A DNA stretch of 64,000 nt from Roseovarius halotolerans (lineage in GTDB: Bacteria > Pseudomonadota > Alphaproteobacteria > Rhodobacterales > Rhodobacteraceae): the NCBI RefSeq assembly GCF_900172255.1, contig NZ_FWFU01000003.1, forward strand, positions 620,001 to 684,000, read 5' to 3'. The position numbers and the translations under genes were made by a program. The notes under the pieces are model-generated. The model was not told the DNA's origin. It was given only the letters and a program-made list of their open reading frames with translations, and did not search any database. Below are positions 37,647 through 54,095 of the stretch, piece after piece. The first letter of the stretch is position 1, and every line of letters begins with the position of its first letter.

Positions 37647-37659
37647 GTCACCCGCCTCC

Positions 37660-38331
37660 TCAAGCTGTCCGGAATGGTGCCTGCAGCACCGCTTCAAGGC
37701 GCCGCACCGCGGCCGAGAGCAACAGGACGATGGTCAGGTAGATCAGGCCGATCGCGAGGAACATCTCGAGCGTGCGGAAATCCATCGCCACCCGGTTCAT
37801 CGCCACAAAGGTCAACTCCGCCACACCGATCGCCTGAAGATAGGACGAGTTCTTGAGCACCGACACAGATGTATTGAGCATCGCGGGAATACAGACCCGC
37901 AGCCCGATGGGTAGTGCGACGAGACGGAGGTAAAGCGCAGGGCGCAACCCAAGCGACAGCGCCGCCTCCTGCAATCCCTTGGGCACCGCCGCCAGCCCGC
38001 CCCGGACATTCTCGGTGTTATAGGCGCCACCCCAGAGCGACAGCGCCAGAACCCCCGACCAGAACCCCCCGAGTCCGAGCCCCAGCGACGCCAGCCCGTA
38101 GAAGATGAAGTAAAGCTGCACCAGAAGCGGCGTCGAGCGCATGAAGTGCACATATGCCGTCGCGATCTGCGATAATACCGGCACCTTGAACAGCCGCAGG
38201 CAGGCACAGACCGTGCCCAGCACCACCGAGATCGCAATCGACACCAGGCTGACGAGCAGCGTCATCCACAGACCCTGGAAAAGGTCCGGCGTCGCCCCCC
38301 AGATGTAGGGAAAGCTGAATTCATAGCTCAT
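37660..38331 (-). CDS. Polar amino acid ABC transporter permease 2
   Basis: This 223-residue GlnP/HisQ-type permease starts MSYEFSFPYIWGATPDLFQGLWMTLLVSL. It has the EAA-like loop LQEAALSLGLRPALYLRLVALPIGLR. The gene is 66 bases downstream of the binding protein gene; a nested stem-loop lies in that gap. It forms the membrane channel with the permease at 36915. Confidence 0.92.
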   Translation of the reverse strand: MSYEFSFPYIWGATPDLFQGLWMTLLVSLVSIAISVVLGTVCACLRLFKVPVLSQIATAYVHFMRSTPLLVQLYFIFYGLASLGLGLGGFWSGVLALSLWGGAYNTENVRGGLAAVPKGLQEAALSLGLRPALYLRLVALPIGLRVCIPAMLNTSVSVLKNSSYLQAIGVAELTFVAMNRVAMDFRTLEMFLAIGLIYLTIVLLLSAAVRRLEAVLQAPFRTA

Positions 38332-38355
38332 GACAGATTGACCTGACTTGAACGG

Positions 38356-38391
38356 GGACGGAACAGGGGCAACGCGGCCCCCATCCCGTCC
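38356..38391. other. Nested stem-loop after opine-type binding protein gene
   Basis: The outer arms GGACGG / CCGTCC enclose the inner arms GGGGC / GCCCC. It sits between the binding protein stop (38398) and the first permease start (38331), as expected for an element that raises binding protein output. Confidence 0.55.
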
Positions 38392-38397
38392 AGGTTC

Positions 38398-39243
38398 TTA
38401 TTGCGACGGCTTCTTGGACATGTCCCAGAAGGTCTTCTTCACCTCGACGGTTTCGGGGTCGGAATAGGTTTCAAGCCACTCGCTCAGCTTGCCCTCTTCG
38501 GCCATCCGCTTGATCGCGGCATTCACATAGGTCAGCCACTCGGTCTCGCCCGGCCGCACGGCCGCGCCCCTTGTGCCGATCTTGTAGGATTCCTCGATCA
38601 GGCGGATCTTGGAATTGTTCTGCACCATCGAAATCAGGACGGCGGTGTCATGCGCATAGCCCTCGACACGGTTCTGCATCAGCGCCTGAAGGCTGTCCGA
38701 AACCCCGTCCAGCAACAGCTTCTCGACCTCGGGATGATGCTCGTCGAAATAGGGAATCTGCCAGGCGCCCTTGATGAAGGCCACCGGCTTGCCTTCGAGA
38801 TCGGCCAGCTTGTTGTATGAATCTTCGGCCCGCACGACCATGCCGGACGACGACCACGCATAGGGGTCGGTGAAATCCACCACTTCGGCCCGCTCGGCGT
38901 TGATCCCCATCGTGGCGATGATCACGTCGATCTTGCCGCCCAGAAGCGCAGGCACCCGGTTCGAGCCGGTGACACAGACGATCTCGGCCGCGGCATCCTC
39001 GCCAAAGGCATATTTCGCGATCTGGTGTCCCATCGACACTTCGACCCCGACCGGCGTGCCGGAATTGTTCAGAAAGCCCTCGGGCGGATAGTCGCATTTC
39101 GTGCCGACGCGCACGACCCCTGCGTCCTCGATGGCCTGGGGCACCGGGGGCATCTCCTGGGCAAAGGCGACCGACGCCGGACCGGCGGCAAGGCACAGCC
39201 CCGCGACAAGCCCGTAGGCGGTGAAAGTCTTTGATGATGTCAT
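38398..39243 (-). CDS. Polar amino acid ABC transporter substrate-binding protein (family 3)
   Basis: This 281-residue periplasmic receptor has a signal peptide (YGLVAGLCLAAGPASVAFA, cleaved before QEMPP). The family 3 signature region is VVRVGTKCDYPPEGFLNNSGTPVGVEVS. It is the first gene of a nine-gene minus-strand operon that runs to 31069. Relatives bind polar amino acids and opines. The operon enzymes suggest an N-carboxyalkyl amino acid or related compound. Confidence 0.92.
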   Translation of the reverse strand: MTSSKTFTAYGLVAGLCLAAGPASVAFAQEMPPVPQAIEDAGVVRVGTKCDYPPEGFLNNSGTPVGVEVSMGHQIAKYAFGEDAAAEIVCVTGSNRVPALLGGKIDVIIATMGINAERAEVVDFTDPYAWSSSGMVVRAEDSYNKLADLEGKPVAFIKGAWQIPYFDEHHPEVEKLLLDGVSDSLQALMQNRVEGYAHDTAVLISMVQNNSKIRLIEESYKIGTRGAAVRPGETEWLTYVNAAIKRMAEEGKLSEWLETYSDPETVEVKKTFWDMSKKPSQ

Positions 39244-39340
39244 CGGGTAGTCTCCTTGTTGTATCTGCTTTTTCCAATCGCAGGCATCGCAGCATCACTG
39301 CGAAACCGGCACGCCGTTCAAATTCGACACATACGCGAAA

Positions 39341-39392
39341 GGTTGTTTTTCTTGGGGCAAGCGTCCGCTCACCTTGGACAACCCTCTTGACG
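39341..39392. promoter_or_regulatory. Divergent control region of the opine-type operon
   Basis: In the 227-base divergent gap, GGTTGT (39341-39346) and ACAACC (39378-39383) form an inverted repeat 37 bases apart centre to centre. A TTGACG (39387-39392) could serve as a -35 box for the LysR gene, followed by a markedly AT-rich stretch to 39430. LysR-type sites are expected here; the exact operator cannot be fixed by eye. Confidence 0.35.
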
Positions 39393-39470
39393 GGATGAGA
39401 TAAAGTCAAAGAATAAATAATGATGAAGATATCACCTGAACTCATATAGGAATAAAAGCGCTTGCCCGAC

Positions 39471-40394
39471 ATGAGGATAACCCACCGCCAGATCGAAGCC
39501 TTCCGCGCATTGATGGTCAGCGGATCGATGACAGAGGCCGCCCAGTATCTCTCGGTCACGCAGCCCGCCGTCTCGAAAATCATCAGCCAGCTGGAATCGG
39601 AACTCGGCTTCTCGCTGTTCGAGCGCCGTCAGGGCAAGCTCAGCCCGACCGATGACGGCTATATCCTCTATGCCGAGGTCGAACAGAGCTTCGCCGGGCT
39701 GGAACGCATCAAACGCGCCGCGAAACGTATCCATGACCGCACCGCCGGCAGCCTGCGCCTCGCGGTCTTGCCGACCTTCGCGACCGGTTTCATCGTCCAT
39801 GTCGCACGGCGGCTCTACCAGACGGTCGGCGGGTTGCAGCTCTCGATTCAGGCCTACAATTCCGAAGAGGCCGTCGAACTGGTCGCCTCAGGCCTGTGCG
39901 AACTCGGCTTCGCCATGACGCCGGTCGATGCGCGGCGCGTCCATGTCGGGCCGGTCATGTCGGTGCCTTCCTTCTGCATCCTGCCACCGGGCCACCGCCT
40001 GCAGGACCGCCACGAGATTTCAGTCGGGGATCTTGCCGGCGAAACCTTCATCGCCACGGCGGAAGGTACCTCGAGCCGCCTGCGGACGGATGCGCTGTTC
40101 GCTTCGATGAACATCTCGCGCCGGATTCAGACCGAGGCGCGCTGGTCGCTCACCATATCCGAATTCGTCCAAGCCGGGCTCGGGTGCAGTATCGTCGACG
40201 GCTTCACCGCTGCCAGTTTCGCGGACCGCGGCGGTCTGGTCAGGCCGCTGCGCGAGAAACTGGATTTCACCTTCGTCTGCATCACCCCGCGGGTCGCAAG
40301 CAAATCGGGCACCATCCGCCTGTTCGACGAGGCCTTCGAGATCGAGTTCGCGGCATTCCAGGAGCGATTGAAAGCCTTGCAGCATACACCTTGA
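39471..40394 (+). CDS. LysR family regulator, OccR/NocR-like
   Basis: This LysR protein of about 307 residues begins MRITHRQIEAFRALMVSGSMTEAAQYLSV, then TQPAVSKIISQLE. The pattern (FRA-M---G-MT-AA, VTQPA) is that of the octopine and nopaline regulators OccR and NocR. It is divergent from the opine-type operon and is its probable activator, with the imported compound as effector. A TTG at 39462 with AGGA ten bases upstream is an alternative start three codons earlier. Confidence 0.88.
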   Translation: MRITHRQIEAFRALMVSGSMTEAAQYLSVTQPAVSKIISQLESELGFSLFERRQGKLSPTDDGYILYAEVEQSFAGLERIKRAAKRIHDRTAGSLRLAVLPTFATGFIVHVARRLYQTVGGLQLSIQAYNSEEAVELVASGLCELGFAMTPVDARRVHVGPVMSVPSFCILPPGHRLQDRHEISVGDLAGETFIATAEGTSSRLRTDALFASMNISRRIQTEARWSLTISEFVQAGLGCSIVDGFTAASFADRGGLVRPLREKLDFTFVCITPRVASKSGTIRLFDEAFEIEFAAFQERLKALQHTP

Positions 40395-40446: not shown

Positions 40447-41346
40447 TCAGGGCTTGCGGAACAACCGTGTCAGTTCAAACAGGCGATCCAGCCGCTCGAA
40501 CCGCTCGCGCGCATCGGGCCAGCGTTCCTCCTGCGTGGCGGCGATCAGCGCCTCCAGCAGCGACAGCGTTGCGATGTTGGAATCCCATGCCGACGGGATC
40601 TCACCCCAGCAATTGAAGGTGATCTCGGCGACACCGGCCACCGGACTGGCCCATTGATCGGTGATCAGGATCACCCTGACCCCGCGCTCGGCCGCGATAT
40701 TGGCCAGCCGCAGCAGGTTCTCTTCATAGCGTCGCACGTCAAAGATCAGCAGCGTATCGCCCTCGACCATATCCAGCACGTAATGCGGCCATGTCGCAGG
40801 CGACGAGGTCAGATGCACCACGCCTTCGCGGATCGCCTGGAAATGGGTAAAGGCATATTCCGCCAATGACCGCGTGATCCGCCCGCCCACGACGTAGAGT
40901 CCCGAATCGCCGGCCAGCAGCTGCGCCGCGGTGTCGAACTGCCGGGAATCGATATTGGCAAAGGTCTGGCTCAGGTTCTGCGTCACCGAATCCGCGAACC
41001 GGTTCAGCATATGCGATTCGGGCGCCTCGGCGGCCCATACTGCGCGCCGCGCCGTGGGGCCTGACACCTTGGCCTGCAACTCCTGAAGCAATGCCTGATG
41101 GAACTGCGGATAACCCTTGAAACCCAGCTTCTGCACCATCCGCGCCACCACCGGCGTCGACACCCCCGCCCCCGCCGCCGCCAGCGTGATCGTCGCCAGG
41201 CCGGCACCGGGATAATCTTCGACCAGCGCATTGGCGAACTTGCGCTCCGATTGGGTCAGCTGCGGATAATGCTTGCGGATCAGCTGGCGCACAGTGACTT
41301 TCGCGGCCGTCTGGGGGGGCGTTCCGGTACGCGCGCGATCAGTCAA
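40447..41346 (-). CDS. MurR/RpiR family transcriptional regulator
   Basis: This regulator of about 299 residues has an N-terminal RpiR helix-turn-helix (VRQLIRKHYPQLTQSERKFA, then GVSTPVVARMVQKLGFKGYPQF) and a C-terminal SIS domain (about 135-280) for binding a phosphorylated or anionic ligand. The frame stays open far upstream, but homology starts near residue 15. The best start is a TTG at 41346 with GAGG eight bases before it; GTG 41424 is an alternative. It is divergent from the amidohydrolase/TRAP/ligase operon and probably controls it through the dyad at 41455. Confidence 0.85.
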   Translation of the reverse strand: MTDRARTGTPPQTAAKVTVRQLIRKHYPQLTQSERKFANALVEDYPGAGLATITLAAAGAGVSTPVVARMVQKLGFKGYPQFHQALLQELQAKVSGPTARRAVWAAEAPESHMLNRFADSVTQNLSQTFANIDSRQFDTAAQLLAGDSGLYVVGGRITRSLAEYAFTHFQAIREGVVHLTSSPATWPHYVLDMVEGDTLLIFDVRRYEENLLRLANIAAERGVRVILITDQWASPVAGVAEITFNCWGEIPSAWDSNIATLSLLEALIAATQEERWPDARERFERLDRLFELTRLFRKP

Positions 41347-41424: not shown

Positions 41425-41470
41425 TGGAAAATTATTGACATAAATATTGCCTCGTGGAAAGGTTTTTCCA
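41425..41470. promoter_or_regulatory. Candidate RpiR operator and promoter
   Basis: TGGAAA-GGTT-TTTCCA (41455-41470) is a perfect dyad, and a third half-site TGGAAA lies at 41425-41430. A TTGACA box (41435-41440) lies between them, with the dyad near the expected -10 position for the plus-strand operon. This suggests repression by the divergent RpiR protein. Confidence 0.5.
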
Positions 41471-41481
41471 ATTGCAGGGGG

Positions 41482-42261
41482 ATGACCGTGGCCGAGACCG
41501 CCGAACAGGCCTATGACGTGATGAATGCGACGGGCGCAGGTCCGGCGGTGATCATCTGCGAACATGCCTCCAACCACATCCCCGAACGCTATCACGGGCT
41601 GGGCCTCGATGACGCCGCCCGCACCAGCCACGCCGCCTGGGACCCCGGCGCCGAAGCCGTGGCCCGCCTGTTGAGCAAGGCCCTCGATGCGCCGCTGATC
41701 GCGGGCCGGGTTTCGCGGCTGGTCTATGATTGCAACCGCCCGCCCGAAGCGCCCAGCGCCATGCCCGCTCAAAGCGAAACCATCGCCATCCCCGCCAATG
41801 CGGCCCTCTCCGACGATGATCGCGCCGAACGCGTCCGCACCGTCTATGACCCGTTCACCGCTGCGGTCACCGACCTCCTCGCGCAGCGCAAGGCGCAGGG
41901 CACGCCCTTCGCGCTGATCACGATGCACAGTTTCACGCCGCTCTGGTTCGGCACGCCGCGCCCGGTCGAGATCGGCATCCTCCATGACGACGACAGCCGC
42001 CTTGCCGATGCCATGCTGGCCGAGACCCACCGCCTGTCGCACCGCCGCATCGCGCGCAACGACCCCTACGGCCCGGCTGACGGGGTGACCCATACGCTGC
42101 GCCTGCACGGGCTGCAGAACGACCTGCCCAACGTGATGATCGAACTGCGCAACGACCTTCTGACCACCCCGGCTGACGAACGCGCGATGGCGCAGGAGCT
42201 GATCACCCTCCTGCTTCCCGCGCTCGCGCACCTGGGCCTTCGGGAGCAAAGCGATGCCTAG
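41482..42261 (+). CDS. N-formylglutamate amidohydrolase family protein
   Basis: This 259-residue protein of the HutG/N-formylglutamate amidohydrolase family has VIICEHASNHIPE at the N-terminus, LVYDCNRPP, LITMHSFTP and VMIELRNDLL. The frame opens earlier, but ATG 41482 with GCAGGGGG upstream is the natural start. Histidine degradation genes are not nearby. With a gamma-glutamyl ligase downstream, the enzyme may instead hydrolyse a gamma-glutamyl amide at the end of the pathway. Its stop overlaps the TRAP small subunit by 8 bases. Confidence 0.88.
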   Translation: MTVAETAEQAYDVMNATGAGPAVIICEHASNHIPERYHGLGLDDAARTSHAAWDPGAEAVARLLSKALDAPLIAGRVSRLVYDCNRPPEAPSAMPAQSETIAIPANAALSDDDRAERVRTVYDPFTAAVTDLLAQRKAQGTPFALITMHSFTPLWFGTPRPVEIGILHDDDSRLADAMLAETHRLSHRRIARNDPYGPADGVTHTLRLHGLQNDLPNVMIELRNDLLTTPADERAMAQELITLLLPALAHLGLREQSDA

Positions 42262-42850
42262 GGCGATGCTGGCCTATATCCGCGTGATCGACCGCCTGAA
42301 CCGCTTCATCGGGCGGATCGCGATGTATATGATTTTCGCGCTGATCGGCGTGCTGCTCTGGTCCTCGGTCTCCAAGACCTTCTTCACCCCGTCCCTCTGG
42401 ACGCTGGAAACCGCGCAGTTCGTGATGGTCGCCTATTACATCCTCGGCGGACCCTATTCGATCCAGCTCGGCTCGAATGTGCGCATGGACCTGTTCTACG
42501 GCGACTGGTCGCCGCGCACCAAGGCCTCGGTCGATGCCTTCACGATCTTCTTCCTGGTCTTCTACCTTGGCGTCCTGTTTTACGGCGCGATCAGTTCGAC
42601 AGCCTATTCGCTGGGCTATTTCGGCATGGAGCCGTTTCAGTTCTTCGGGGATCTTCTGGTGACCTTCGTTACCCAGGGGCCGACCGCCGCAGGTGACATG
42701 CTGGGCCACCTCGAGGTGAGCTCGACCGCCTGGCGGCCGCAGATCTGGCCGATCAAGGTGCTGCTCTGCGTCGGGGTCTTCCTGATGATCCTGCAATGTC
42801 TGGCGGAATTCTTCCGCGATCTCGGTCGCATCCGGGGAGTGGAGGTCTGA
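42254..42850 (+). CDS. TRAP transporter small permease (DctQ type)
   Basis: This 198-residue membrane protein has four hydrophobic segments. RIAMYMIFALIGVLLWSSVSKTFF and TAQFVMVAYYILGGPYSI are the first two, and the DctQ hallmark RMDLFYGDWSPRTKA follows. It overlaps the amidohydrolase gene, and its stop overlaps the DctM start (TGATG), so the three are coupled. Confidence 0.9.
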   Translation: MPRAMLAYIRVIDRLNRFIGRIAMYMIFALIGVLLWSSVSKTFFTPSLWTLETAQFVMVAYYILGGPYSIQLGSNVRMDLFYGDWSPRTKASVDAFTIFFLVFYLGVLFYGAISSTAYSLGYFGMEPFQFFGDLLVTFVTQGPTAAGDMLGHLEVSSTAWRPQIWPIKVLLCVGVFLMILQCLAEFFRDLGRIRGVEV

Positions 42851-44172
42851 TGTCCCAGGAACTCATCGCCGTTGTCATGTTCTCCGGCATGATGCTGATG
42901 CTGATGACCGGACAGCGCGTGTTCGGCGCCATCGGTTTCGTCGGGGCAATGGCCGGGCTGATGCTCTGGGGCACGGGTGGCGCCGAGATTCCGTTCTCGG
43001 CCGCGATGAAGCTGATGAAGTGGTATCCGCTGCTGACGCTGCCGATGTTCATCTTCATGGGCTACGTGCTCTCGGAAAGCCGCATCGCGGACGACCTCTA
43101 CAAGATGTTCCATGTCTGGATGGGGCCGGTGCGCGGCGGGCTGGCCATCGGCACGATCGGGCTGATGGTGCTGATTTCGGCAATGAACGGCCTCTCGGTC
43201 GCCGGCATGGCGATCGGCGCCACCATCGCCCTGCCCGAACTTCTGCGGCGCAATTACGACAAGCTGATGGTGACCGGCGTGATCCAGGCCGGGTCATCCC
43301 TTGGCATTCTTGTGCCGCCATCGGTGGTGCTGGTGCTTTATGCGATGATCGCGCGCCAGCCAGTCGGACAGCTCTGGCTGGCCGGAGTGGTGCCGGGGCT
43401 GATGATGGCGACGCTGTTCATCTTCTATATCTGGCTGCGCTGCCGGATTCAGCCCGAACTGGGGCCGGTCCTCCCCAAGGAAGAACGCAACGTCCCCCTC
43501 TCAGAGAAACTGCGCCTCCTGCGCGCCGGCCTTCTGCCGCTGGTGATCTTCGCCACCATGATGGTGCCCTTCGTCAAGGGCTGGACCTCGCTGGTGGAAA
43601 GCTCGGCCATCGGGGCGATCACGGCCTTTCTGGCGGCGGTCCTCAAGGGGCGCATGACCCGCGAGGTGTTCGAGACATCCGTGCGCAGCACGCTGGCGAT
43701 CTCCTGCATGTTCATGTGGATTATCCTCGCCGCTCTCGGCTTCGGCGCGATCTTCGACGGGCTGGGCGCGGTCAGCGCCATCGAGGACCTGTTTACCGCG
43801 CAGCTGGGCCTTGGCCCCTGGGGAATCCTGATCCTCATGCAGCTCAGCTTCATCATCATGGGCACGTTTCTTGACGATACCGCTATGCTGGTGATCGTCG
43901 CGCCGCTCTACGTGCCATTGGTGGGCGCGTTGGGGTTCGATCTGATCTGGTATGGTGTGCTCTACACGATCACCACGCAGATCGCCTATATGACCCCGCC
44001 CTTCGGCTACAACCTGTTCTTGATGCGCGCGATGGCGCCACCCGAAATCAGCCTGCGCGACATCTACCGCTCGATCGTGCCCTTCGTGGCCGTCATGGCC
44101 CTGGCGCTGGCGCTGGTGATGCTGTTCCCGCAGATCGCGCTCTGGCTGCCGAACTACGTCTACGGAAAATAA
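42850..44172 (+). CDS. TRAP transporter large permease (DctM type)
   Basis: This 440-residue polytopic permease has about 12 membrane segments. GSSLGILVPPSVVLVLYAM and GTFLDDTAMLVIVAPLYVP are DctM family motifs. It uses the sodium gradient to import the ligand delivered by the binding protein at 44227. The start is ATG 42850, which overlaps the preceding stop. Confidence 0.92.
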   Translation: MSQELIAVVMFSGMMLMLMTGQRVFGAIGFVGAMAGLMLWGTGGAEIPFSAAMKLMKWYPLLTLPMFIFMGYVLSESRIADDLYKMFHVWMGPVRGGLAIGTIGLMVLISAMNGLSVAGMAIGATIALPELLRRNYDKLMVTGVIQAGSSLGILVPPSVVLVLYAMIARQPVGQLWLAGVVPGLMMATLFIFYIWLRCRIQPELGPVLPKEERNVPLSEKLRLLRAGLLPLVIFATMMVPFVKGWTSLVESSAIGAITAFLAAVLKGRMTREVFETSVRSTLAISCMFMWIILAALGFGAIFDGLGAVSAIEDLFTAQLGLGPWGILILMQLSFIIMGTFLDDTAMLVIVAPLYVPLVGALGFDLIWYGVLYTITTQIAYMTPPFGYNLFLMRAMAPPEISLRDIYRSIVPFVAVMALALALVMLFPQIALWLPNYVYGK

Positions 44173-44184
44173 CCGCAAGAAGAA

Positions 44185-44200
44185 GCCCCGCCCAAGGGGC
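44185..44200. other. Small stem-loop between dctM and dctP
   Basis: GCCCC-GCCCAA-GGGGC lies 12 bases after the DctM stop and about 25 before the binding protein start. It may mark a processing site that separates the abundant binding protein message. Confidence 0.4.
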
Positions 44201-44226
44201 CGAACCATAACAAGGAGAGAAAGAAA

Positions 44227-45264
44227 ATGACCACGACAAGACGCAAGTTCCTGAAAAGCGCCGGGATCGGTATCGCCGCAACGCCGCTGGCCGCCCCGGC
44301 CATCGCGCAATCCACCATCACCTGGCGGATGCAGACCTATGCCGGCGCGGCCCTCGCCGAGCATGTGGTGAAGCCCGCGATCGACACCTTCAACAAGATC
44401 GCCGGAGACCGCATGCAGATCGAGCTATTCTTCGCCGATCAGCTGGTCCCGACCGGCGAGCTCTTTCGCGCTCTCCAGCGCGGCACCATCGACGCGGTGC
44501 AGTCGGATGACGATTCGATGGCCTCGCCCACCGAAGTCACCGTGTTCGGCGGCTATTTCCCCTTCGGCTCGCGCTACTCGCTCGATGTGCCGGTTCTGTT
44601 CAACCAGTATGGCCTGAAGGATATCTGGGACGAGGAATACGCCAAGGTCGGCGTCAAGCATATCAGCGCCGGGTCCTGGGACCCCTGCCATTTCGCCACC
44701 AAGGACCCGATCCACAGCCTCGAGGATCTCAAGGGCAAGCGCGTCTTCACCTTCCCCACAGCGGGCCGCTTTCTGTCGCAGTTCGGCGTCGTGCCGGTGA
44801 CGTTGCCCTGGGAGGACATCGAGGTCGCCGTGCAGACCGGCGAACTTGACGGCATCGCATGGTCGGGCATCACCGAGGATTACACCGTCGGCTGGGCCGA
44901 CGTGACCGACTACTTCCTCACCAACAACATCTCCGGCGCCTGGGTTGGCCATTTCTTCGCCAATATGGGCCGCTGGGAGGAACTGCCCGAGGATCTGCAA
45001 CTTCTGCTGGCTACCTGCATGGAGCAGTCGCATTACTATCGCCAGTGGTGGTATTGGGGCGGCGAAGCGCGGCTGCGCGTCAACGGCGAGAAGATGAAAC
45101 TCACCACGATCCCCGATGCCGAGTGGGCGACGGTCGAATCCGCCGCGCGCGAATTCTGGGACGAGATCGCGGCCGAGTCCGAAACCAAGGCGAAGGTCGT
45201 CGAGATCTTCAAGCAATACAACGCCGACATGGAAAAAGCGGGCCGTCCATACCGCTACACCTGA
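44227..45264 (+). CDS. TRAP transporter substrate-binding protein (DctP type)
   Basis: This 345-residue receptor has a twin-arginine signal peptide, TTTRRKFLKSAGIGIAATPLAAPAIA, cleaved before QSTITWRMQ. Export is thus of a folded protein, possibly already carrying a ligand or ion. The body has the DctP features GDRMQIELFFADQLVP and the arginine-containing region KRVFTFPTAGRFLSQFG. It completes the TRAP importer. The ligand is unknown; the operon enzymes suggest an amine or amino alcohol. Confidence 0.92.
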   Translation: MTTTRRKFLKSAGIGIAATPLAAPAIAQSTITWRMQTYAGAALAEHVVKPAIDTFNKIAGDRMQIELFFADQLVPTGELFRALQRGTIDAVQSDDDSMASPTEVTVFGGYFPFGSRYSLDVPVLFNQYGLKDIWDEEYAKVGVKHISAGSWDPCHFATKDPIHSLEDLKGKRVFTFPTAGRFLSQFGVVPVTLPWEDIEVAVQTGELDGIAWSGITEDYTVGWADVTDYFLTNNISGAWVGHFFANMGRWEELPEDLQLLLATCMEQSHYYRQWWYWGGEARLRVNGEKMKLTTIPDAEWATVESAAREFWDEIAAESETKAKVVEIFKQYNADMEKAGRPYRYT

Positions 45265-45283
45265 CCCGGCACCACACTGACCC

Positions 45284-45308
45284 GAGGGGGCCGCTTCATG
45301 GCCCCCTC
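45284..45308. other. Stem-loop after TRAP binding protein gene
   Basis: GAGGGGGCC-GCTTCAT-GGCCCCCTC is a perfect 9-bp stem 20 bases behind the stop of the binding protein gene. It is followed by CCCTTG without a T-run. It probably stabilises the upstream message or attenuates the downstream enzyme genes. Confidence 0.6.
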
Positions 45309-45334
45309 CCCTTGTATGAACGGAGCGAATGCAC

Positions 45335-46696
45335 ATGGCTGCCCTGACCCTGGACGAGCTGAAAACCAAGGCCGCAAGCGGCGAAATCGACACGGTGCTG
45401 GTCTGCGCCGTGGACATGCAGGGCCGGCTGACCGGCAAGCGGTTCCATGTGTCGAACTTCCTGGAAAGCGCGCATGAGGAAACCCATTGCTGCAACTACC
45501 TCTTGGCGACCGACCTTGAGATGCAGACGCCCGAGGGCTTCGCGGCGACAAGCTGGGCCTCGGGTTATGGCGATTACGTCATGAAACCCGACCTCGCCAC
45601 CATGCGCCCGGTGCCCTGGCTCGAGGGCACGGTGCTGGTGCTCTGCGACTATCTCGATCACCACCACCACGCCCCGGTCCCCCACTCGCCACGCCAGATC
45701 CTTCAGGCGCAGGTGGCACGCGCCGCCGCAATGGGCTTCACCCCGATGATGGCGACCGAACTGGAATTCTTCCTGTTCAAGAAAAGCTATGACGAGATCC
45801 GCGCCAGCGGCTATCGCGACCTCGAACCGGTGGTGAAATACAATCAGGACTACTCGATCCAGTTCACCAGCCGCGAAGAACATGTCATGCGCCCGGTGCG
45901 CAACGCGCTCTACGCAATGGGCATCCCGGTCGAGAACACCAAGGGCGAGGCCGAAATCGGCCAGGGTGAGCTCAACATCCGCTACGGCGATGCGCTCACC
46001 GCCTGCGACCAGCACGTCCTGGCCAAGCACGCCGTCAAGGAAATCGCCCATCAACATGGCCACGCGGCGACCTTCCTGCCCAAATGGCACGCCGACAAGG
46101 TCGGCAGCGCCGCCCATATCCACCAGTCGCTCTTCGCCGACGGCAACAATGTCTTTCACGACGCCAGCGGCGACCACTCCATGTCGAAGATCATGGGCCA
46201 TTACGTCGCCGGCCTGTTGAAATACGCGCCCGACTGCATGCTGCTGATGGCGCCCTATATCAACAGCTACAAGCGCTTCGTGCCCGGCACCTTCGCGCCC
46301 ACCAAATCCGCATGGTCCGTGGACAACCGCACCGCCGGTTTCCGCCTCGTGGGCGAGAACACCAAGGGCGTGCGCATCGAATGCCGCATCCCCGGCTCGG
46401 ACATGAACCCCTATCTCGCCTGCGCGGGCCAGCTCGCCGCCGGGCTTGCCGGGATCGAGGAGGAACTGGACCTCCCCGCGCCGGTCCAGGGCGATCTCTA
46501 CAGCATGGATGACGTGGCCGAGGTGCCCTACACCCTCGGCGCCGCCACGGCGGCCTTCCGCAACTCCGCCATGCTGCGGCGCGCGCTTGGCGACGATGTC
46601 GTCGATCACTACACCCGCGCCGCCGAGGTCGAACAGGAAGACTTCGACCGCACCGTCACCGATTACGAAATCCAGCGCGGCTTTGAACGCGCCTGA
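45335..46696 (+). CDS. Glutamine-synthetase-like gamma-glutamylamide synthetase (PuuA/GlnA3-4 type)
   Basis: This ligase of about 453 residues belongs to the glutamine synthetase superfamily, non-GlnA group. Metal and substrate motifs are MATELEFFLF, GEAEIGQGELNIRYGD, GSAAHIHQSLF and the ATP/glutamate region APYINSYKRFVPGTF. The N-terminus is short, as in PuuA and the GlnA3/GlnA4 polyamine and ethanolamine enzymes. The expected reaction joins glutamate to an amine with ATP. ATG 45335 has GGAG nine bases upstream and is preferred over ATG 45329. Aldehyde and alcohol dehydrogenase genes follow at once. Confidence 0.87.
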   Translation: MAALTLDELKTKAASGEIDTVLVCAVDMQGRLTGKRFHVSNFLESAHEETHCCNYLLATDLEMQTPEGFAATSWASGYGDYVMKPDLATMRPVPWLEGTVLVLCDYLDHHHHAPVPHSPRQILQAQVARAAAMGFTPMMATELEFFLFKKSYDEIRASGYRDLEPVVKYNQDYSIQFTSREEHVMRPVRNALYAMGIPVENTKGEAEIGQGELNIRYGDALTACDQHVLAKHAVKEIAHQHGHAATFLPKWHADKVGSAAHIHQSLFADGNNVFHDASGDHSMSKIMGHYVAGLLKYAPDCMLLMAPYINSYKRFVPGTFAPTKSAWSVDNRTAGFRLVGENTKGVRIECRIPGSDMNPYLACAGQLAAGLAGIEEELDLPAPVQGDLYSMDDVAEVPYTLGAATAAFRNSAMLRRALGDDVVDHYTRAAEVEQEDFDRTVTDYEIQRGFERA

Positions 46697-46712
46697 TCCC
46701 CAGAGGACTCGC

Positions 46713-48092
46713 ATGACCACCCTGACCTGCACATCGCCGATCGACGGATCGGCCTTCGCCACCCGAGAGACCCTGACCGCGGATGCGGCCCGTGACGCCA
46801 TCGCCAAGACCCGCGCCGCGCAGGCCGACTGGGCCGCGCGCCCGCTTCAGGAACGCATCGACCTCGTCATGGCCGGTGTCGCCGCCATCGGCGAGATGAA
46901 CGACGAAATCGTCCCCGAACTGGCCCGGATGATGGGCCGCCCCGTCCGGTATGGCGGCGAATTCGGCGGCTTCAACGAACGCGCGTCATACATGGCCGAA
47001 ATCGCCCAAGAGGGGCTGGCCGATATCGAAATCTCGGATGACGCGACCTTCCACCGCTATATCCGGCGCGTGCCGCACGGGGTGGTCTTCGTGGTGGCGC
47101 CCTGGAACTACCCTTACATGACGGCGATCAACACCGTCGCCCCGGCGCTGATCGCGGGCAACGCGGTGGTGCTCAAACACGCCACGCAAACCCTGCTGGT
47201 GGGCGAACGCATGGCCCGTGCCTTCCACGATGCCGGCGTACCCGAGGACGTGTTCCGCAACGTGTTCCTCGATCACGACACCACCTCGCAGCTCATCTCG
47301 GAAAGCTGCTTCGATTTCGTCAACTTCACCGGCTCGGTGGGCGGCGGCAAGGCGATGGAACGCGCCGCCGCGGGCACCTTCACCGGGCTTGGGCTGGAAC
47401 TTGGCGGCAAGGATCCGGGCTATGTGATGGAAGACGCCGACCTCGACGCTGCGGTCGATACGCTGATCGACGGCGCGATGTTCAACTCGGGCCAGTGCTG
47501 CTGCGGGATCGAGCGCATCTACGTCCATGAAAGCCTGTTCGACGCCTTCGTCGAGAAGGCCGTGGCCATCGTCAAGGGCTACAGGCTGGGCGACCCGCTC
47601 GACCCCGAAACCACCATCGGTCCGATGGCCAATGCCCGTTTCGCCGCCGAGGTGCGCGCCCAGATATCCGAGGCTCTCGAGGCCGGGGCAACCGCCCATA
47701 TCGACACCTTCGCGCAGGATGACGGCGGCACGTATCTGACACCCCAGATCCTGACCGGAGTCAGCCACGACATGCGTGTCATGCGCGACGAAAGTTTCGG
47801 CCCCGTGGTCGGCATCATGCCGGTGCGCGACGATGCCGAGGCCATCGCGCTGATGAATGACAGCCCCTTCGGCCTCACGGCCTCGCTCTGGACCGCGGAT
47901 GTGGCGCGCGCGGCGCGGATCGGCGACGCCATCGAGACCGGCACGATCTTCATGAACCGGGCCGATTACCTCGATCCGGCGCTCTGCTGGACCGGCTGCA
48001 AAAGCACCGGCCGGGGCGGCGCGCTCTCGGTCATCGGCTATCACAACCTCACCCGTCCCAAATCCTACCACCTCAAGAAGGTCACATCATGA
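46713..48092 (+). CDS. NAD(P)-dependent aldehyde dehydrogenase
   Basis: This 459-residue ALDH superfamily enzyme has the N-anchor FVVAPWNYP, NFTGSVGGGKAME, ELGGKDPGYV with the general-base glutamate, and the catalytic cysteine in NSGQCCCGIERIY. It would oxidise an aldehyde to an acid in the cytosol. The start is ATG 46713 behind AGAGGA. The alcohol dehydrogenase start overlaps its stop (ATGA). In the proposed route it acts on a gamma-glutamyl aminoaldehyde, as PuuC does in putrescine breakdown. Confidence 0.92.
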   Translation: MTTLTCTSPIDGSAFATRETLTADAARDAIAKTRAAQADWAARPLQERIDLVMAGVAAIGEMNDEIVPELARMMGRPVRYGGEFGGFNERASYMAEIAQEGLADIEISDDATFHRYIRRVPHGVVFVVAPWNYPYMTAINTVAPALIAGNAVVLKHATQTLLVGERMARAFHDAGVPEDVFRNVFLDHDTTSQLISESCFDFVNFTGSVGGGKAMERAAAGTFTGLGLELGGKDPGYVMEDADLDAAVDTLIDGAMFNSGQCCCGIERIYVHESLFDAFVEKAVAIVKGYRLGDPLDPETTIGPMANARFAAEVRAQISEALEAGATAHIDTFAQDDGGTYLTPQILTGVSHDMRVMRDESFGPVVGIMPVRDDAEAIALMNDSPFGLTASLWTADVARAARIGDAIETGTIFMNRADYLDPALCWTGCKSTGRGGALSVIGYHNLTRPKSYHLKKVTS

Positions 48093-49234
48093 GCCTCACC
48101 GCAAACTGGTCCTATCCGACCGCCATCCGCTTTGGCGCAGGCCGCATCGCGGAACTGCCCGACGCCTGCCGCCAGTCCTCGATCACCAAACCCCTGCTGG
48201 TCACAGACCGCGGGCTTGCCGGGCTGCCGATCACCGCACAGGCACTCGACATCCTGCGCGAGGCCGGGCTTGATGCCGGGCTGTTCGCGGATGTCGATCC
48301 CAACCCCAATGAAACCAACCTCGCCGCCGGTGTCGCCGCCTATAACGCAGGCGGCCATGACGGCGTGATCGCCTTTGGCGGCGGCTCGGGGCTCGATCTG
48401 GGCAAATGCGTGGCCTTCATGGCCGGACAGACCCGCCCGGTCTGGGATTTCGAGGATATCGGCGATTGGTGGACCCGCGCCGATGCCGACGCCATCGCGC
48501 CCATCATCGCCGTGCCCACCACCGCCGGAACCGGCTCCGAAGTGGGCCGCGCGGGCGTTCTGACCAATTCTGAAACCCACGAGAAAAAGATTATCTTCCA
48601 CCCCCGGATGCTGCCCGCCGTGGTGATCTGCGATGCCGAACTGACCGTCGGCATGCCGCGCGCCATCACCGCCGGGACCGGGCTTGACGCCTTCGCCCAC
48701 TGCGTCGAGGCGTTCTCCTCGCCCCATTACCACCCGATGAGCCAGGGTATCGCGCTCGAAGGGATGCGGCTGGTGGTCGAATACCTGCCGCGCGCCTATG
48801 AGGATGGCACCGATATCGAGGCCCGCGCCCAGATGATGAGCGCAGCCGCCATGGGCGCCACCGCCTTTCAGAAGGGGCTCGGCGCGATCCATGCCATGAG
48901 TCACCCGATCGGGGCGCATTTCAACACCCATCACGGCACCACCAACGCGGTCTGCATGCCCGCCGTTCTGGACCTCAACGAGCCGATGATCGCCGGGCGC
49001 TTCGACCTTGCCGCGAGCTACCTGGGGATCGAAGGCGGCTACAAGGGCTTCCGCGCCTTTGTCGACGGTTTCAATGACCGTCTGGGCGTGCCCAAGGGGC
49101 TGGCCGCGCTTGGCGTGAACGAAGCCGCCATTCCCGATCTGGTCAAGGGCGCGATCAAGGACCCGTCCTGTGGCGGCAACCCGGTCGAATTGACCGAAGA
49201 GAACCTGACCGCGCTCTTCCGCGCGGCGATGTAA
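48089..49234 (+). CDS. Iron-containing (group III) alcohol dehydrogenase
   Basis: This 381-residue enzyme has the NAD-binding GGGSGLDLGKCVAFM segment, PTTAGTGSEVGRAGVL, and the metal ligands in GLDAFAHCVEAFSS and AMSHPIGAHFNTHHGTTNA. It would convert an alcohol to the aldehyde used by the ALDH encoded just upstream. The two genes are translationally coupled. It is the last gene of the seven-gene plus-strand operon. Confidence 0.92.
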   Translation: MSLTANWSYPTAIRFGAGRIAELPDACRQSSITKPLLVTDRGLAGLPITAQALDILREAGLDAGLFADVDPNPNETNLAAGVAAYNAGGHDGVIAFGGGSGLDLGKCVAFMAGQTRPVWDFEDIGDWWTRADADAIAPIIAVPTTAGTGSEVGRAGVLTNSETHEKKIIFHPRMLPAVVICDAELTVGMPRAITAGTGLDAFAHCVEAFSSPHYHPMSQGIALEGMRLVVEYLPRAYEDGTDIEARAQMMSAAAMGATAFQKGLGAIHAMSHPIGAHFNTHHGTTNAVCMPAVLDLNEPMIAGRFDLAASYLGIEGGYKGFRAFVDGFNDRLGVPKGLAALGVNEAAIPDLVKGAIKDPSCGGNPVELTEENLTALFRAAM

Positions 49235-49305: not shown

Positions 49306-52300
49306 TCAATGAAAATCCCGGCTCGGAAACAGCCGCTTGGCCTGTTCGCGCGGATGGCGCGCGCGCGGCGGATAGCGCGCGGGGCGGGGCGCGTCGTCGG
49401 TCTCGGGGCGGGTGACGCCGACCGCCTCGTCCAGCGGATGCCCCAGTTCCGACAGCCGCGGCGACAGGTCTTCGACCTGCTGCGCGATCACATGCACGAT
49501 GATGCCCTCGCGCTGAAGATAGCCGCGCACCCGCAACAGCCGCCCCCCCATGACGACCCGGCGGAATTGTTCGTATATCCTCGGCCAGACCACGATATTC
49601 GACACCCCGGTCTCATCCTCCAGCGTCAGGAATATCACCCCCGACGAGGTGCCGGGGCGCTGGCGCGTGATGACCAGACCGCAGACGCTGACCTGTTTCA
49701 GCGGCGTCGTCGCCAACCGTTCATGCGGCATGAGGTCAGGGATCGCGGGGCGCAGGATCTCCATCGGATGCGCCCGCAGCGTCAGCCGCGTCGAGACGTA
49801 ATCCTCCACTACCTCCTCGCCCAGATGCATCGCCGGCAGCTCGACCACCGGCTCGCGGATCGCCTCGCCGTCGATCGGGTCGTTGAACAGCGGCAGCGGC
49901 GCCTGCCCGCGCACCGCCTTCACCTGCCATAGCGCATCGCGCCGGGTCAGCCCCATATCGGCAAAGGCATCCGCCTCGGCCAGCCGCGCCAGCACCGCGG
50001 GCGCGACCCCGGCCCTCAGCCAGACCGCCTCGGGATCGCGATAGCCATTGCCGCGCGCCGCGACGATCCAGCCCGCATCCTCCTCGCGCAGGCCCTTGAT
50101 CTGGCGAAACCCCAGCCGCAACGCCAGCCGCCCGTCGGCGCGCCGCTCCAAGAGGTTGTCCCAGCCGCTCGCATTCACGCAGACCGGCCGCACCTCGACA
50201 TGATGCTCACGCGCATCGCGCACGATCTGGGCCGGCGCATAGAACCCCATCGGCTGCGCATTCAGCAGCGCACAGGCAAAGATCGCCGGATGATGGCATT
50301 TCAGCCATGCCGAGACATAGGCCAGCATGGCAAAGGCCGCCGCGTGGCTTTCGGGAAAGCCGTAATCGGCAAAGCCCTCGATCTGGTCGAAACAGCGCTC
50401 CGCCACCTCCTGGCTGTAACCATTGCCCAGCATCCCGGCGATGAACTTGTCCCGAAACGCGCCGATCGTGCCCATCCGCCGGAACGAGGCCAGCGAGCGG
50501 CGCAGATGGTCGGCCTCTTCCGCCGTGAACCCCGCCCCGACCACAGCGATCTGCATCGCCTGCTCCTGGAACAGCGGCACACCCAGGGTGCGCCGCGTCA
50601 CCTCTTCCAGCGCGTCGCCGAACGGTTCGGGTCGCTCCAGCCCCTGGCGCCGCCTGATATAGGGCTGCACCATGCCGCCCTGGATCGGGCCGGGGCGCAC
50701 GATGGCGACCTCGATCACCAGATCATAGAAGGTCGCAGGCTTCATCCGGGGCAGGAAATTCATCTGCGCGCGGCTTTCCACCTGGAACACGCCCACCGCA
50801 TCGGCCCGTTGCAGCATCTCGTAGGTCGCCGGGTCCTCCTGCGGGACGCTGTCGATGGTCATGCGTGTGCCCGCGTGCCGCTCCAGCAGGTCAAAGGCCT
50901 TGCGGATACAGGTCAGCATCCCCAGCGACAGGATATCGACCTTGAGAATGCCCAGCGTGTCGATATCGTCCTTGTCCCACTCGATGACGGTGCGGTCCTC
51001 CATCGCCGCGTTCTCGATCGCACACAGCTCATCCAGCCGCCCCCGCGTGATGACGAACCCGCCCACATGCTGCGACAGATGCCGCGGAAAGCCGATGATC
51101 TCGCCGATCAGCCGGATGGTCTGCGCCAGCCTGCGATCCTCGGGATCAAGCCCCAGCTCGCGGATCCGCTCGGGTTCCGCCCCACCATTCGACATGCCCC
51201 AGATCTGCCCCGACAGGTTGGCCGTCACATCCTGGCTGAGGCCCATCACCTTGCCCACCTCCCGGATCGCCGCCCGGCTGCGGAAATGAATGACCGTCGC
51301 ACAGAGCCCCGCCCGGTGGCGACCGTAGCGTTCATAGATCCACTGGATCACCTCCTCGCGCCGCTCATGCTCGAAATCCACGTCGATATCGGGCGGCTCG
51401 CCCCGGTATTTCGAGATGAACCGCTCGACCACCATGGCGATCTGGTCCGGCCCCACATCGGTGATCCCGAGCAGGTAACACAGGATCGAATTCGCAGCCG
51501 AGCCGCGCCCCTGGCACAGGATGCCCCGCGAACGGGCGTAACAGACGATATCGTGAACGGTCAGGAAATAGGCGGCGAAACCCAGCTCCGCGACCAGCTT
51601 CAGCTCCTTTTCCAACAGCGCATGAACCCGTTCGGGCGCATCACCGCGCGGATAGCGCCGCGTCACCCCCTCACGCGCCAGCCGCTCCAGCCGCGCCTGC
51701 GGGGTCTCGCCCTCGGACATCTCGTCGGGATATTCATAGCTCAGCTCGCTCAGGCAGAAACTGCACCGCGCGGCGATCTCCAGCGTCCGGCGCAGCGCGG
51801 CGGGATGATCGCGAAACACCCGCGCCATGTCGTCATGACCCTTGAGGCGCCGCTCCGCATTGGGCAGCGCGCGGGTGCCGATCTCGTCGATGGTGATATG
51901 TTCGCGCATGCAGGTCAGCACATCCGCCAACTGGCGGCGCGCGGCCCGGTGCATCAGCACATCGCCCACCGCCACCATCGGCGCCGAGGCCCGGTGCGCC
52001 AGCCGCGCACAGGCCCGCAGATAGGCCTGATCCGACCCGTCATAGCGCGGCGCGGCGCCCAGGAACACATGCCCCGGAAACCGCCGCTGCATCTTTTGCA
52101 AAGGCCCCAGCACCCCCGACAGCCGCCCCTGCGGCAGCGCCACAAGGATCATACCCGCACAGCCCTCCAGCAGATCGGCAAGATCCAGGTGGCATTCCCC
52201 CTTCCCGGCCCGCCGCTTGCCCAGGGTCAACAGCCGGGTCAGCCGCTGATACCCCGCCCTTTCGCAAGGCAGCGCAAGCCACTCCACCGGGCTGTCGCGC

Positions 52301-52620
52301 AACACAAGACGGCAGCCCGTGATCAGCCGCGGCAGGCGCGGCGCTTCGGGCCGTGCGATCGGCGCCGCCTGCCCCACCTCCTGACGCGAACAAGGGTCGA
52401 TCCGGTGCTGCGACCGTATCCGTATCGCCGCCTCGTCCGCCTCGCGCCGCAACGCCTTCAGCGCCGCATAAGCCCGCACCACACCGGCCAGCGAATTGCG
52501 GTCGGTGATGGCGATCGCCTCAAGCCCCAGCTCCGCCGCGCGCGTCACCATCTCCTCGGGATGCGACGCGCCGGTCAGGAAGGTGAAATTCGTGGTCACG
52601 CAGAGTTCCGCATAGCTCAT
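49306..52620 (-). CDS. dnaE2: Error-prone DNA polymerase III alpha subunit (ImuC/DnaE2)
   Basis: This 1104-residue damage-induced polymerase alpha subunit has an N-terminal PHP domain (LCVTTNFTFLTGASHPEEMV) and palm motifs GRGSAANSILCYLLG and PDIDVDFEHERREEVIQWIYERYG. The C-terminus is an OB-fold region. It is clearly different from the replicative DnaE at 228-3731. It performs lesion bypass together with ImuA and ImuB. Its start overlaps the imuB stop (ATGA), so the cassette is one operon in the order imuA-imuB-dnaE2. Confidence 0.95.
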   Translation of the reverse strand: MSYAELCVTTNFTFLTGASHPEEMVTRAAELGLEAIAITDRNSLAGVVRAYAALKALRREADEAAIRIRSQHRIDPCSRQEVGQAAPIARPEAPRLPRLITGCRLVLRDSPVEWLALPCERAGYQRLTRLLTLGKRRAGKGECHLDLADLLEGCAGMILVALPQGRLSGVLGPLQKMQRRFPGHVFLGAAPRYDGSDQAYLRACARLAHRASAPMVAVGDVLMHRAARRQLADVLTCMREHITIDEIGTRALPNAERRLKGHDDMARVFRDHPAALRRTLEIAARCSFCLSELSYEYPDEMSEGETPQARLERLAREGVTRRYPRGDAPERVHALLEKELKLVAELGFAAYFLTVHDIVCYARSRGILCQGRGSAANSILCYLLGITDVGPDQIAMVVERFISKYRGEPPDIDVDFEHERREEVIQWIYERYGRHRAGLCATVIHFRSRAAIREVGKVMGLSQDVTANLSGQIWGMSNGGAEPERIRELGLDPEDRRLAQTIRLIGEIIGFPRHLSQHVGGFVITRGRLDELCAIENAAMEDRTVIEWDKDDIDTLGILKVDILSLGMLTCIRKAFDLLERHAGTRMTIDSVPQEDPATYEMLQRADAVGVFQVESRAQMNFLPRMKPATFYDLVIEVAIVRPGPIQGGMVQPYIRRRQGLERPEPFGDALEEVTRRTLGVPLFQEQAMQIAVVGAGFTAEEADHLRRSLASFRRMGTIGAFRDKFIAGMLGNGYSQEVAERCFDQIEGFADYGFPESHAAAFAMLAYVSAWLKCHHPAIFACALLNAQPMGFYAPAQIVRDAREHHVEVRPVCVNASGWDNLLERRADGRLALRLGFRQIKGLREEDAGWIVAARGNGYRDPEAVWLRAGVAPAVLARLAEADAFADMGLTRRDALWQVKAVRGQAPLPLFNDPIDGEAIREPVVELPAMHLGEEVVEDYVSTRLTLRAHPMEILRPAIPDLMPHERLATTPLKQVSVCGLVITRQRPGTSSGVIFLTLEDETGVSNIVVWPRIYEQFRRVVMGGRLLRVRGYLQREGIIVHVIAQQVEDLSPRLSELGHPLDEAVGVTRPETDDAPRPARYPPRARHPREQAKRLFPSRDFH

Positions 52621-54095
52621 GCGAATTCCCCCTGCACGAACCAGCCCGGCCTTTGCGGCGTATGAAACAGCCAGAGCCGCCGCCCCTGCCGGGTCTCCAC
52701 ATGCCAGTAATCGCGCAGGCCCGAGCGCCAGTTGTCATCCTCCAGCCACCATTCCGGCGCGATCCTCTCCGGCCCCGTGGCCCGCGCCGTCACAAGCCGC
52801 ATCCGCCGCCAGCGGAAATGCTGCGGCGGGCGCGGCCCGCTGCCCGCGATCGGCTCGGGCGCGAACAGGCGCAACGGACGCGGGCGCAGACTGACCCAAG
52901 ACCCCTCCGGCCGGCTGTAAGCCGCCGGGGCGACGATGAAACCGCGCTCGGGGATATGGCTGTCGGCAGGCAGGAAGCGGCGGATATTCTCCAGCCCGAT
53001 CCGGGTGCCCAGGCGACTGACCAGATCGTCCAGCCGCGCCCGGCTGTCGGTGGAAACATGGCTCAGCTGCTGAACCGGCAAGGGCTCGACCCGCGTCGCC
53101 TCCAGCCGCATCTGGTCGATCCCGTAACCCGCTTCCACCTTGCTCACGCCGCGCTCGAACAGCGGCAGGATGCGGGCCGGGTCGCGCAGCGGGCGCGCCA
53201 GCCGCAATTCCACGCTCTGCGCCTCCTGATCGACCCGGCGCAGCGTCAGGCACAAGGCCCGCGCGCCCGCCTCCTGCGCCTTCAGCCTGTCGCAGATCCG
53301 CTCCAGCAGCCGCGCCGCGCCCGCCATGACATCGCCCTGCAAGCCAATCGGCTCTGGCAGGGTCATGCGCGCGCCGTAATGGGGCGGCTCGGCCAGCGGG
53401 GTGATCTGCTCGGGCTGGCGGCCCAGCGCCTGGTCCAGCCGCAACAGCGGCTCCGGCCCGAACCGGCGCGCCAGCGGCGCGCGCGCCGTGGCCTCCAGTT
53501 CGGCAATACTGCGCAATCCCAGCCGTTGCAGGGCGGTGACGGTGCCCTCGTCCAGTCGCAGCGCAGTCACCGGCAGCGCCCCCAGCGCCTCCATCGGCGC
53601 ACCCGGCGCGGCCAGCCCCTCGCCATGACGCGCCAGCGCCCAGGCCGCGCCGCGCGTATCCGCCAGCCCGATCCGCCCCGAAACCCCACCCCGCGCAAGC
53701 TGCCGGCGCATATCCGACAGCATCATCGCCTCGCCGCCGAACAGATGCGCCGCCCCGGTGATATCCAGCACCAGCCCGGAATCGCCCTCAAGGCCGACCC
53801 AGGGACAATAGCGCGTCGCCCAGCGGCGCAGCACATGCAGGAATCGCATATCGCTGCGCGGCTCCGCCGGGCGGCTTTGCAGGTCGGGGCAGAACGCCCG
53901 CGCATCCGACACCGACATGCCCCGATGCAGCCCCAGCCGCTCGGCCTGCGCATTGAGGCAATATATGCGGTTGGCGTTGTTCTGCTTCAGCGTCAGGGCA
54001 AACGGCCCGTCAACCGGATGCGCGCGCAGAACCCGGTCGCTCGCCAACCGGGGAAACCACATCGAGACGACGCGACGTCCTATCCCATCGAACAT
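52617..54095 (-). CDS. imuB: ImuB, Y-family polymerase-like mutagenesis protein
   Basis: This 492-residue Y-family-like protein starts RRVVSMWFPRLASDRVLR. The polymerase fold follows (GLHRGMSVSDARAFCPDL, GLVLDITGAAHLFGGE, and the helix-hairpin-helix region LQRLGLRSIAELEA), but the catalytic acidic residues of active Y-family enzymes are missing, as is normal for ImuB. It serves as the hub linking DnaE2 to the sliding clamp. The gene overlaps imuA by 86 bases if the first ATG is used; ATG 54062 is an alternative. Confidence 0.92.
   Translation of the reverse strand: MFDGIGRRVVSMWFPRLASDRVLRAHPVDGPFALTLKQNNANRIYCLNAQAERLGLHRGMSVSDARAFCPDLQSRPAEPRSDMRFLHVLRRWATRYCPWVGLEGDSGLVLDITGAAHLFGGEAMMLSDMRRQLARGGVSGRIGLADTRGAAWALARHGEGLAAPGAPMEALGALPVTALRLDEGTVTALQRLGLRSIAELEATARAPLARRFGPEPLLRLDQALGRQPEQITPLAEPPHYGARMTLPEPIGLQGDVMAGAARLLERICDRLKAQEAGARALCLTLRRVDQEAQSVELRLARPLRDPARILPLFERGVSKVEAGYGIDQMRLEATRVEPLPVQQLSHVSTDSRARLDDLVSRLGTRIGLENIRRFLPADSHIPERGFIVAPAAYSRPEGSWVSLRPRPLRLFAPEPIAGSGPRPPQHFRWRRMRLVTARATGPERIAPEWWLEDDNWRSGLRDYWHVETRQGRRLWLFHTPQRPGWFVQGEFA

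What the first reader, a model, noticed from the sequence alone, without database searches (positions are those of the whole stretch)
41482..49234. Complete candidate gamma-glutamylation pathway for an amino alcohol with its own TRAP importer
One plus-strand operon encodes an amidohydrolase, a three-part TRAP importer, a PuuA/GlnA4-like ligase, an aldehyde dehydrogenase and an iron alcohol dehydrogenase. Read in pathway order: import of an amino alcohol, ATP-dependent coupling to glutamate, oxidation of the alcohol to aldehyde and then acid, and hydrolysis back to glutamate plus an amino acid. The logic is that of the putrescine (Puu) pathway, but with an alcohol dehydrogenase in place of the amine oxidase. 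Ethanolamine (to glycine), aminopropanol (to beta-alanine) or alaninol (to alanine) would fit. The isopropylamine pathway and Streptomyces GlnA4 give precedents for the first step. I know of no described TRAP-linked version.
Basis: partly seen in the sequence, partly recalled or inferred. Interest (0 to 1): 0.85.

Follow-up and report, generated by a model that had tools for sequence, protein, structure and literature searches.

The report
Known ethanolamine-use operon in Roseovarius

Summary
Seven plus-strand genes at 41482-49234 encode an FGase-family amidohydrolase, a DctQ/M/P TRAP importer, a glutamine-synthetase-like ligase, an aldehyde dehydrogenase and an iron alcohol dehydrogenase. Westermann et al. 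2023 (PMC10132767) describe the same eight genes in the same order in Phaeobacter sp. MED193 as an ethanolamine gamma-glutamylation operon, with the binding protein EtoX binding ethanolamine at Kd 7.9 uM, and refer the pathway to earlier work on Chromohalobacter and Agrobacterium (Vetting et al. 2015). The window's binding protein is 86% identical to Csal_0678 (PDB 4UAB, solved with ethanolamine). Its ligase is 65% identical to PDB 5dm3, scores below the curated cut-offs for PuuA and for glutamine synthetases, and has Phe where E. coli GlnA has its flap glutamate. The host is a Roseovarius without EutB. 59 of 80 related genome loci keep all eight genes in order. A side observation may be new: EtoX in this operon comes in two sequence types, one per genome, exchanged in place; the window has the type whose ligand is known.

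The parts
40447..41298 (-). RpiR-family regulator (HTH_6 + SIS), divergent from the operon; start codon uncertain (GTG near 41298 is my choice)
   Evidence: Pfam SIS 63 bits, HTH_6 48 bits; same position in 59 of 80 related loci and in Phaeobacter MED193
41455..41470 (.). inverted repeat TGGAAA-N4-TTTCCA, candidate operator
   Evidence: exact in 16 of 22 regulator/operon gaps whose RpiR is at least 60% identical (window included), in 0 of 41 with a more distant RpiR
41482..42261 (+). FGase-family amidohydrolase, proposed gamma-glutamylglycine hydrolase (GGAH)
   Evidence: PF05013 150 bits; HutG equivalog model 21 bits against a cut-off of 279; closest solved chain 2odf, Atu2144, 261 bits
42254..42850 (+). 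TRAP small permease, DctQ (EtoV)
   Evidence: PF04290 58 bits
42850..44172 (+). TRAP large permease, DctM (EtoW); ORF can also start at 42796
   Evidence: PF06808 217 bits
44227..45264 (+). TRAP ethanolamine-binding protein (EtoX), type A
   Evidence: PF03480; 85.9% identical over 319 residues to PDB 4uab/4xf5
45329..46696 (+). glutamine-synthetase-like ligase, proposed glutamate--ethanolamine ligase (ETAGA)
   Evidence: PF00120 346 bits; 64.7% identical to PDB 5dm3; tree and residues
46713..48092 (+). aldehyde dehydrogenase, proposed gamma-glutamyl-aminoacetaldehyde dehydrogenase (GAADDH)
   Evidence: PF00171 389 bits; start
48089..49234 (+). iron alcohol dehydrogenase, proposed gamma-glutamylethanolamide dehydrogenase (GETADH)
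   Evidence: PF00465 159 bits and PF25137 144 bits

Best explanation
It is the eto operon for catabolism of ethanolamine by gamma-glutamylation. EtoX captures ethanolamine in the periplasm and the DctQ/M permease brings it in. The ligase couples it to glutamate with ATP, giving gamma-glutamylethanolamide. The iron alcohol dehydrogenase and then the aldehyde dehydrogenase oxidise the alcohol to gamma-glutamylglycine. The FGase-family amidohydrolase splits that into glutamate and glycine. The RpiR regulator probably switches the operon through the inverted repeat at 41455-41470. Shown in other organisms: ethanolamine binding by two EtoX homologues, and induction of the operon's proteins on phosphoethanolamine. 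Inferred by homology here: every step in this organism, and the regulator-site link.
For: Same eight genes, same order, in Phaeobacter MED193, with EtoX binding ethanolamine (Kd 7.9 uM), no binding of four other compounds tested, and five of the operon's proteins raised on phosphoethanolamine (passages). EtoX here is 85.9% identical to the protein crystallised with ethanolamine and keeps a Glu in the invariant stretch WSGITEDYTVGWA. The ligase is nearest to PDB 5dm3 and 11zs, far from true glutamine synthetases (655 and 535 bits against about 191), keeps the GS catalytic residues but has Phe for the flap Glu 327. Operon conserved in 59 of 80 loci. No EutB in the own genome. Related loci pair the ligase with a gene annotated as ethanolamine permease in Thermomicrobium.
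Against: No assay was made on these proteins, and in the passages I saw the four enzymes of MED193 were assigned by induction and position, not assayed one by one; the figure calls the pathway predicted. PMC6529630 describes the Chromohalobacter pathway as predicted in silico, whereas PMC10132767 calls it demonstrated. Vetting et al. could not be read. The Glu equivalence to Csal Glu220 rests on an assumed numbering shift of three. Some loci lack the ALDH (L031, L052, L096) or the TRAP genes.
Confidence: 0.93

Rival explanations
1. The same chemistry but another main substrate: a small amino alcohol such as alaninol (2-aminopropanol) or aminopropanol, giving alanine or beta-alanine.
For: The sequence of 4uab is shared by a second entry, 4xf5, which I recall as the same protein with 2-amino-1-propanol bound (not checked). 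The ligase family also occurs beside other gene sets.
Against: The EtoX homologues with a published ligand bind ethanolamine and the window's EtoX belongs with Csal_0678.
Confidence: 0.05
2. The ligase is a glutamine or gamma-glutamylmethylamide synthetase, or a PuuA, and the operon serves ammonia, methylamine or polyamines.
For: It belongs to PF00120.
Against: Below the cut-offs for type I GS (246 of 429), type III (249 of 470) and PuuA (229 of 650); set apart from E. coli GlnA and PuuA in the tree, though those rows have long branches; flap Glu replaced by Phe; an alcohol dehydrogenase has no place in those pathways.
Confidence: 0.02

Closest known systems
eto operon of Phaeobacter sp. MED193 (MED193_10021 to 10056; Westermann et al. 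2023, PMC10132767)
   Same: Eight genes, order and proposed functions: RpiR, GGAH, EtoV, EtoW, EtoX, ETAGA, GAADDH, GETADH.
   Different: Only the host (Roseovarius); MED193 sequences themselves were not in hand, so identity was not measured.
Chromohalobacter salexigens Csal_0678 TRAP binding protein (PDB 4UAB) and the ligase of PDB 5dm3
   Same: EtoX 85.9% identical, ungapped over 319 residues; ligase 64.7%. I recall 5dm3 as coming from the same organism.
   Different: The Chromohalobacter gene order was not examined here.
Streptomyces coelicolor GlnA4 pathway (PMC6529630)
   Same: Gamma-glutamylation of ethanolamine, proposed oxidation to gamma-glutamylglycine and hydrolysis by an FGase-family protein, SCO1615.
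   Different: No TRAP importer; a short-chain dehydrogenase in the cluster. GlnA4's sequence was not compared.
E. coli Puu pathway
   Same: Ligate to glutamate, oxidise, hydrolyse.
   Different: Amine oxidase PuuB instead of an alcohol dehydrogenase, PuuP importer, PuuD hydrolase; ligase well below the PuuA cut-off.
Isopropylamine (Ipu) pathway
   Same: Gamma-glutamylation first (recalled).
   Different: Not compared; no sequence in hand.

Membership tests
eto ethanolamine gamma-glutamylation operon | gene set and order RpiR / amidohydrolase-DctQ-DctM-DctP-ligase-ALDH-FeADH | tested here: met
eto ethanolamine gamma-glutamylation operon | binding protein homologous to ethanolamine-binding Csal_0678, lacking the usual carboxylate-binding Arg | tested here: met
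   85.9% identity, ungapped; Csal_0678 lacks the Arg by PMC4646407; the stretch TFPTAG is invariant in the window, Csal_0678 and 68 loci
eto ethanolamine gamma-glutamylation operon | EtoX binds ethanolamine; operon induced by ethanolamine | not testable with these tools
   needs protein and cells
PuuA, gamma-glutamylputrescine synthetase | NCBIfam NF045547 at or above 650 bits | tested here: not met
   229 bits
Type I glutamine synthetase | TIGR00653 at or above 429 bits; flap Glu 327 | tested here: not met
   246 bits; Phe at that column in the window, 5dm3 and 80 of 80 loci
Type III glutamate--ammonia ligase | TIGR03105 at or above 470 bits | tested here: not met
   249 bits
HutG N-formylglutamate deformylase | TIGR02017 at or above 279 bits | tested here: not met
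   21 bits
eut ethanolamine ammonia-lyase pathway | EutB | tested here: not met
   0 of 1 genome (own); the control search found it in E. coli
GlnA4 | orthology to SCO1613 | not tested
   sequence not in hand

The most novel reading that the evidence does not exclude
The operon family uses two interchangeable binding proteins. Type A (window, Csal_0678; 76-99% to the window among 68 loci) and type B (62-68%) sit in the same slot of otherwise matching operons, one per genome, and have been swapped several times on the ligase tree. They differ at 26 nearly fixed positions, including aromatic ones (W151/Q, W195/Y, Y270/T), while the stretch holding the presumed ligand-binding Glu is invariant. 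Type B may be tuned to another amino alcohol or another concentration range, so that a lineage changes its diet or affinity by exchanging one gene.
Probability: 0.25. Interest if true: 0.4.

Novelty: already known. Interest (0 to 1): 0.14.

Why it matters
It moves an attractive annotation from 'new pathway' to 'known pathway, new host', and adds that this Roseovarius has the eto operon and no EutB. Within the genus, 69 of 84 genomes examined have an EtoX, so ethanolamine from membrane lipids is probably a common food there. The two exchangeable EtoX types are a small open question that a binding assay could settle.

Tried and rejected
Considered and set aside: true glutamine synthetase, methylamide synthetase or PuuA; HutG histidine pathway; eut pathway. 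A search for a second EtoX in the 80 loci found none. The gap between EtoX and ligase in L043 holds an unrelated membrane protein, not a second binding protein. Paper searches; the search for rhizobitoxine and glutamine synthetase together was used as a listing only. The tree is a quick one with long branches for GlnA, PuuA, the own paralogues and two actinobacterial rows; its deep joins are not relied on, and its only rows of known glutamine synthetase function are E. coli GlnA and, as contrast, PuuA. The own-genome paralogue at contig 3 lacks the flap Glu too, so it was not used as a true synthetase. No structure was predicted: at 86% identity to a solved protein it would add little, and no coordinates are returned for mapping the pocket.

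Full report
What is there. Small or negative gaps fit one operon. A divergent RpiR-family regulator lies on the other side. The ligase scan of named genomes gives Roseovarius as nearest kin: Roseovarius sp. EGI FJ00037 at 94% of the ligase, R. pacificus at 87%. Records of the window's own genome may be left out of that collection.

What it is. The binding protein is decisive. It matches PDB 4uab/4xf5 at 660 bits, the next chain at 64; the alignment is ungapped over 319 residues at 85.9% identity. A passage of PMC12410723 says 4UAB is Csal_0678 of Chromohalobacter salexigens with ethanolamine at 1.40 A, held by Glu220 and aromatic side chains; a passage of PMC4646407 says it lacks the usual carboxylate-binding Arg. 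In the window the only Glu in the matching stretch is at 217; taking it as Glu220 assumes a numbering shift of three. It is invariant in the window, Csal_0678 and 68 locus proteins.

The ligase matches 5dm3 at 655 bits and 11zs at 535, glutamine synthetases at about 191 or less. It fails the curated cut-offs for type I GS, type III and PuuA. Aligned with E. coli GlnA (residue numbers recalled), it keeps Glu 129, 131, 212, 220, 357, His 269 and Arg 321, 339, 344, 355, 359, but has Phe at 327 and Asp at 179, as do 5dm3 and 80 of 80 locus ligases. PuuA has Tyr at 327. Asp 50 of GlnA aligns with Glu in the window, but with Asp in 60 of 80 loci, so that column says little. In a quick 35-row tree the window ligase lies with 5dm3 and the alphaproteobacterial rows, apart from GlnA and PuuA; the tool warns of long branches there.

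Prior description. Passages of PMC10132767 (abstract and section list) give the operon in Phaeobacter MED193 as RpiR, gamma-glutamylglycine amidohydrolase, EtoV, EtoW, EtoX, ethanolamine gamma-glutamylase, aldehyde dehydrogenase, gamma-glutamylethanolamide dehydrogenase: the same genes in the same order as here. Five of them (amidohydrolase, EtoX, ligase, two dehydrogenases) were raised on phosphoethanolamine; EtoX bound ethanolamine at Kd 7.9 uM and did not bind four other compounds named. The authors say related genes were demonstrated to work as an ethanolamine pathway in C. salexigens and A. tumefaciens by reference 32, Vetting et al. 2015. PMC6529630 (abstract, section list and four passages) says the Chromohalobacter pathway was predicted in silico, and proposes the same FGase-family hydrolysis step for Streptomyces. 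Vetting et al. is not held; I recall its abstract as announcing a novel pathway for ethanolamine as sole nitrogen source.

Distribution. The genome scan with the ligase matched 222 places, of which the best 80 were kept. 59 of these 80 have all eight genes in order, L030 with only an ALDH fragment. Of the other 21, several are cut by contig ends, and others are real variants: ligase and dehydrogenases without TRAP genes (for example L033, L044, L055, L095, L098), no ALDH hit (L031, L052, L096), or ligase alone (L034, L061, L081). On plasmids, 17 records have EtoX and 42 a ligase relative at the limits used. Paracoccus denitrificans PD1222 plasmid 1 has the full operon; Rhizobium leguminosarum pSK03 has an amino acid permease in the TRAP place; Aminobacter pAA03 has none there and lies beside bhcABC; Thermomicrobium has a gene annotated as ethanolamine permease. 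The importer is thus the changeable module, the ligase the fixed one.

Regulation. A TGGAAA-N4-TTTCCA repeat at 41455-41470 is exact in 16 and within one mismatch in 19 of 22 gaps with an RpiR at least 60% identical, but in 0 of 41 with a more distant RpiR; base shuffles of the 22 gave a mean of 0.005. The 22 are close relatives, so they are not independent.

Two EtoX types. Among 68 full-length EtoX of the 80 loci, identity to the window is 76-99% (35) or 62-68% (33), with 26 positions nearly fixed differently. On the ligase tree the type changes at least 8 times (4 forced by well-supported branches; 23 on shuffled labels), on the DctM tree of 67 rows 6 times. In the genus, 84 genomes examined: 69 have exactly one match at E of 1e-60 or better, 31 full-length at 81-100%, 2 fragments at 86 and 89%, and 36 at 62-69%; none has two. 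The limit used would hide more distant copies. Whether type B binds something else is unknown; I did not establish which type MED193 EtoX is, nor whether this split is in print (search showed no paper on it, by listing only).

Verdict.

Noticed in passing
L022-L101 (68 full-length EtoX) and 84 Roseovarius-genus genomes: EtoX comes in two sharply separated types, one per genome, swapped within otherwise matching operons.
   Followed up: partly
41455-41470: Conserved inverted repeat in front of the operon, tracking the RpiR subtype.
   Followed up: partly
L031, L052, L096, L030: Operons with no ALDH hit, or in L030 only a fragment, between ligase and alcohol dehydrogenase; the missing step may be done by an unlinked ALDH.
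   Followed up: no
L105 (Aminobacter aminovorans pAA03): TRAP-less version next to bhcRABC (beta-hydroxyaspartate cycle) and flavin monooxygenase genes on a conjugative plasmid.
   Followed up: no
L106 (Paraburkholderia sabiae pPs24235_1): A 54% identical ligase sits with an aminotransferase, a PLP-dependent transferase, a desaturase, a gamma-glutamyl-GABA hydrolase family gene and a homoserine O-succinyltransferase, which recalls rhizobitoxine biosynthesis; a gamma-glutamyl protecting step on serinol is a guess.
   Followed up: no
L068: A MAG labelled Mesoflavibacter (Bacteroidota) carries the full operon at alphaproteobacteria-like identity; probably a mislabelled or mixed assembly.
   Followed up: no
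35374-40394: Neighbouring argininosuccinate-lyase-like gene, two ABC permeases and a family 3 binding protein on the minus strand, with a LysR regulator on the plus strand; an amino-acid-type uptake cluster not tied to the operon.
   Followed up: no
49306-54095: DnaE2-like polymerase and ImuB-like protein downstream on the minus strand, an ordinary mutagenesis cassette.
   Followed up: no
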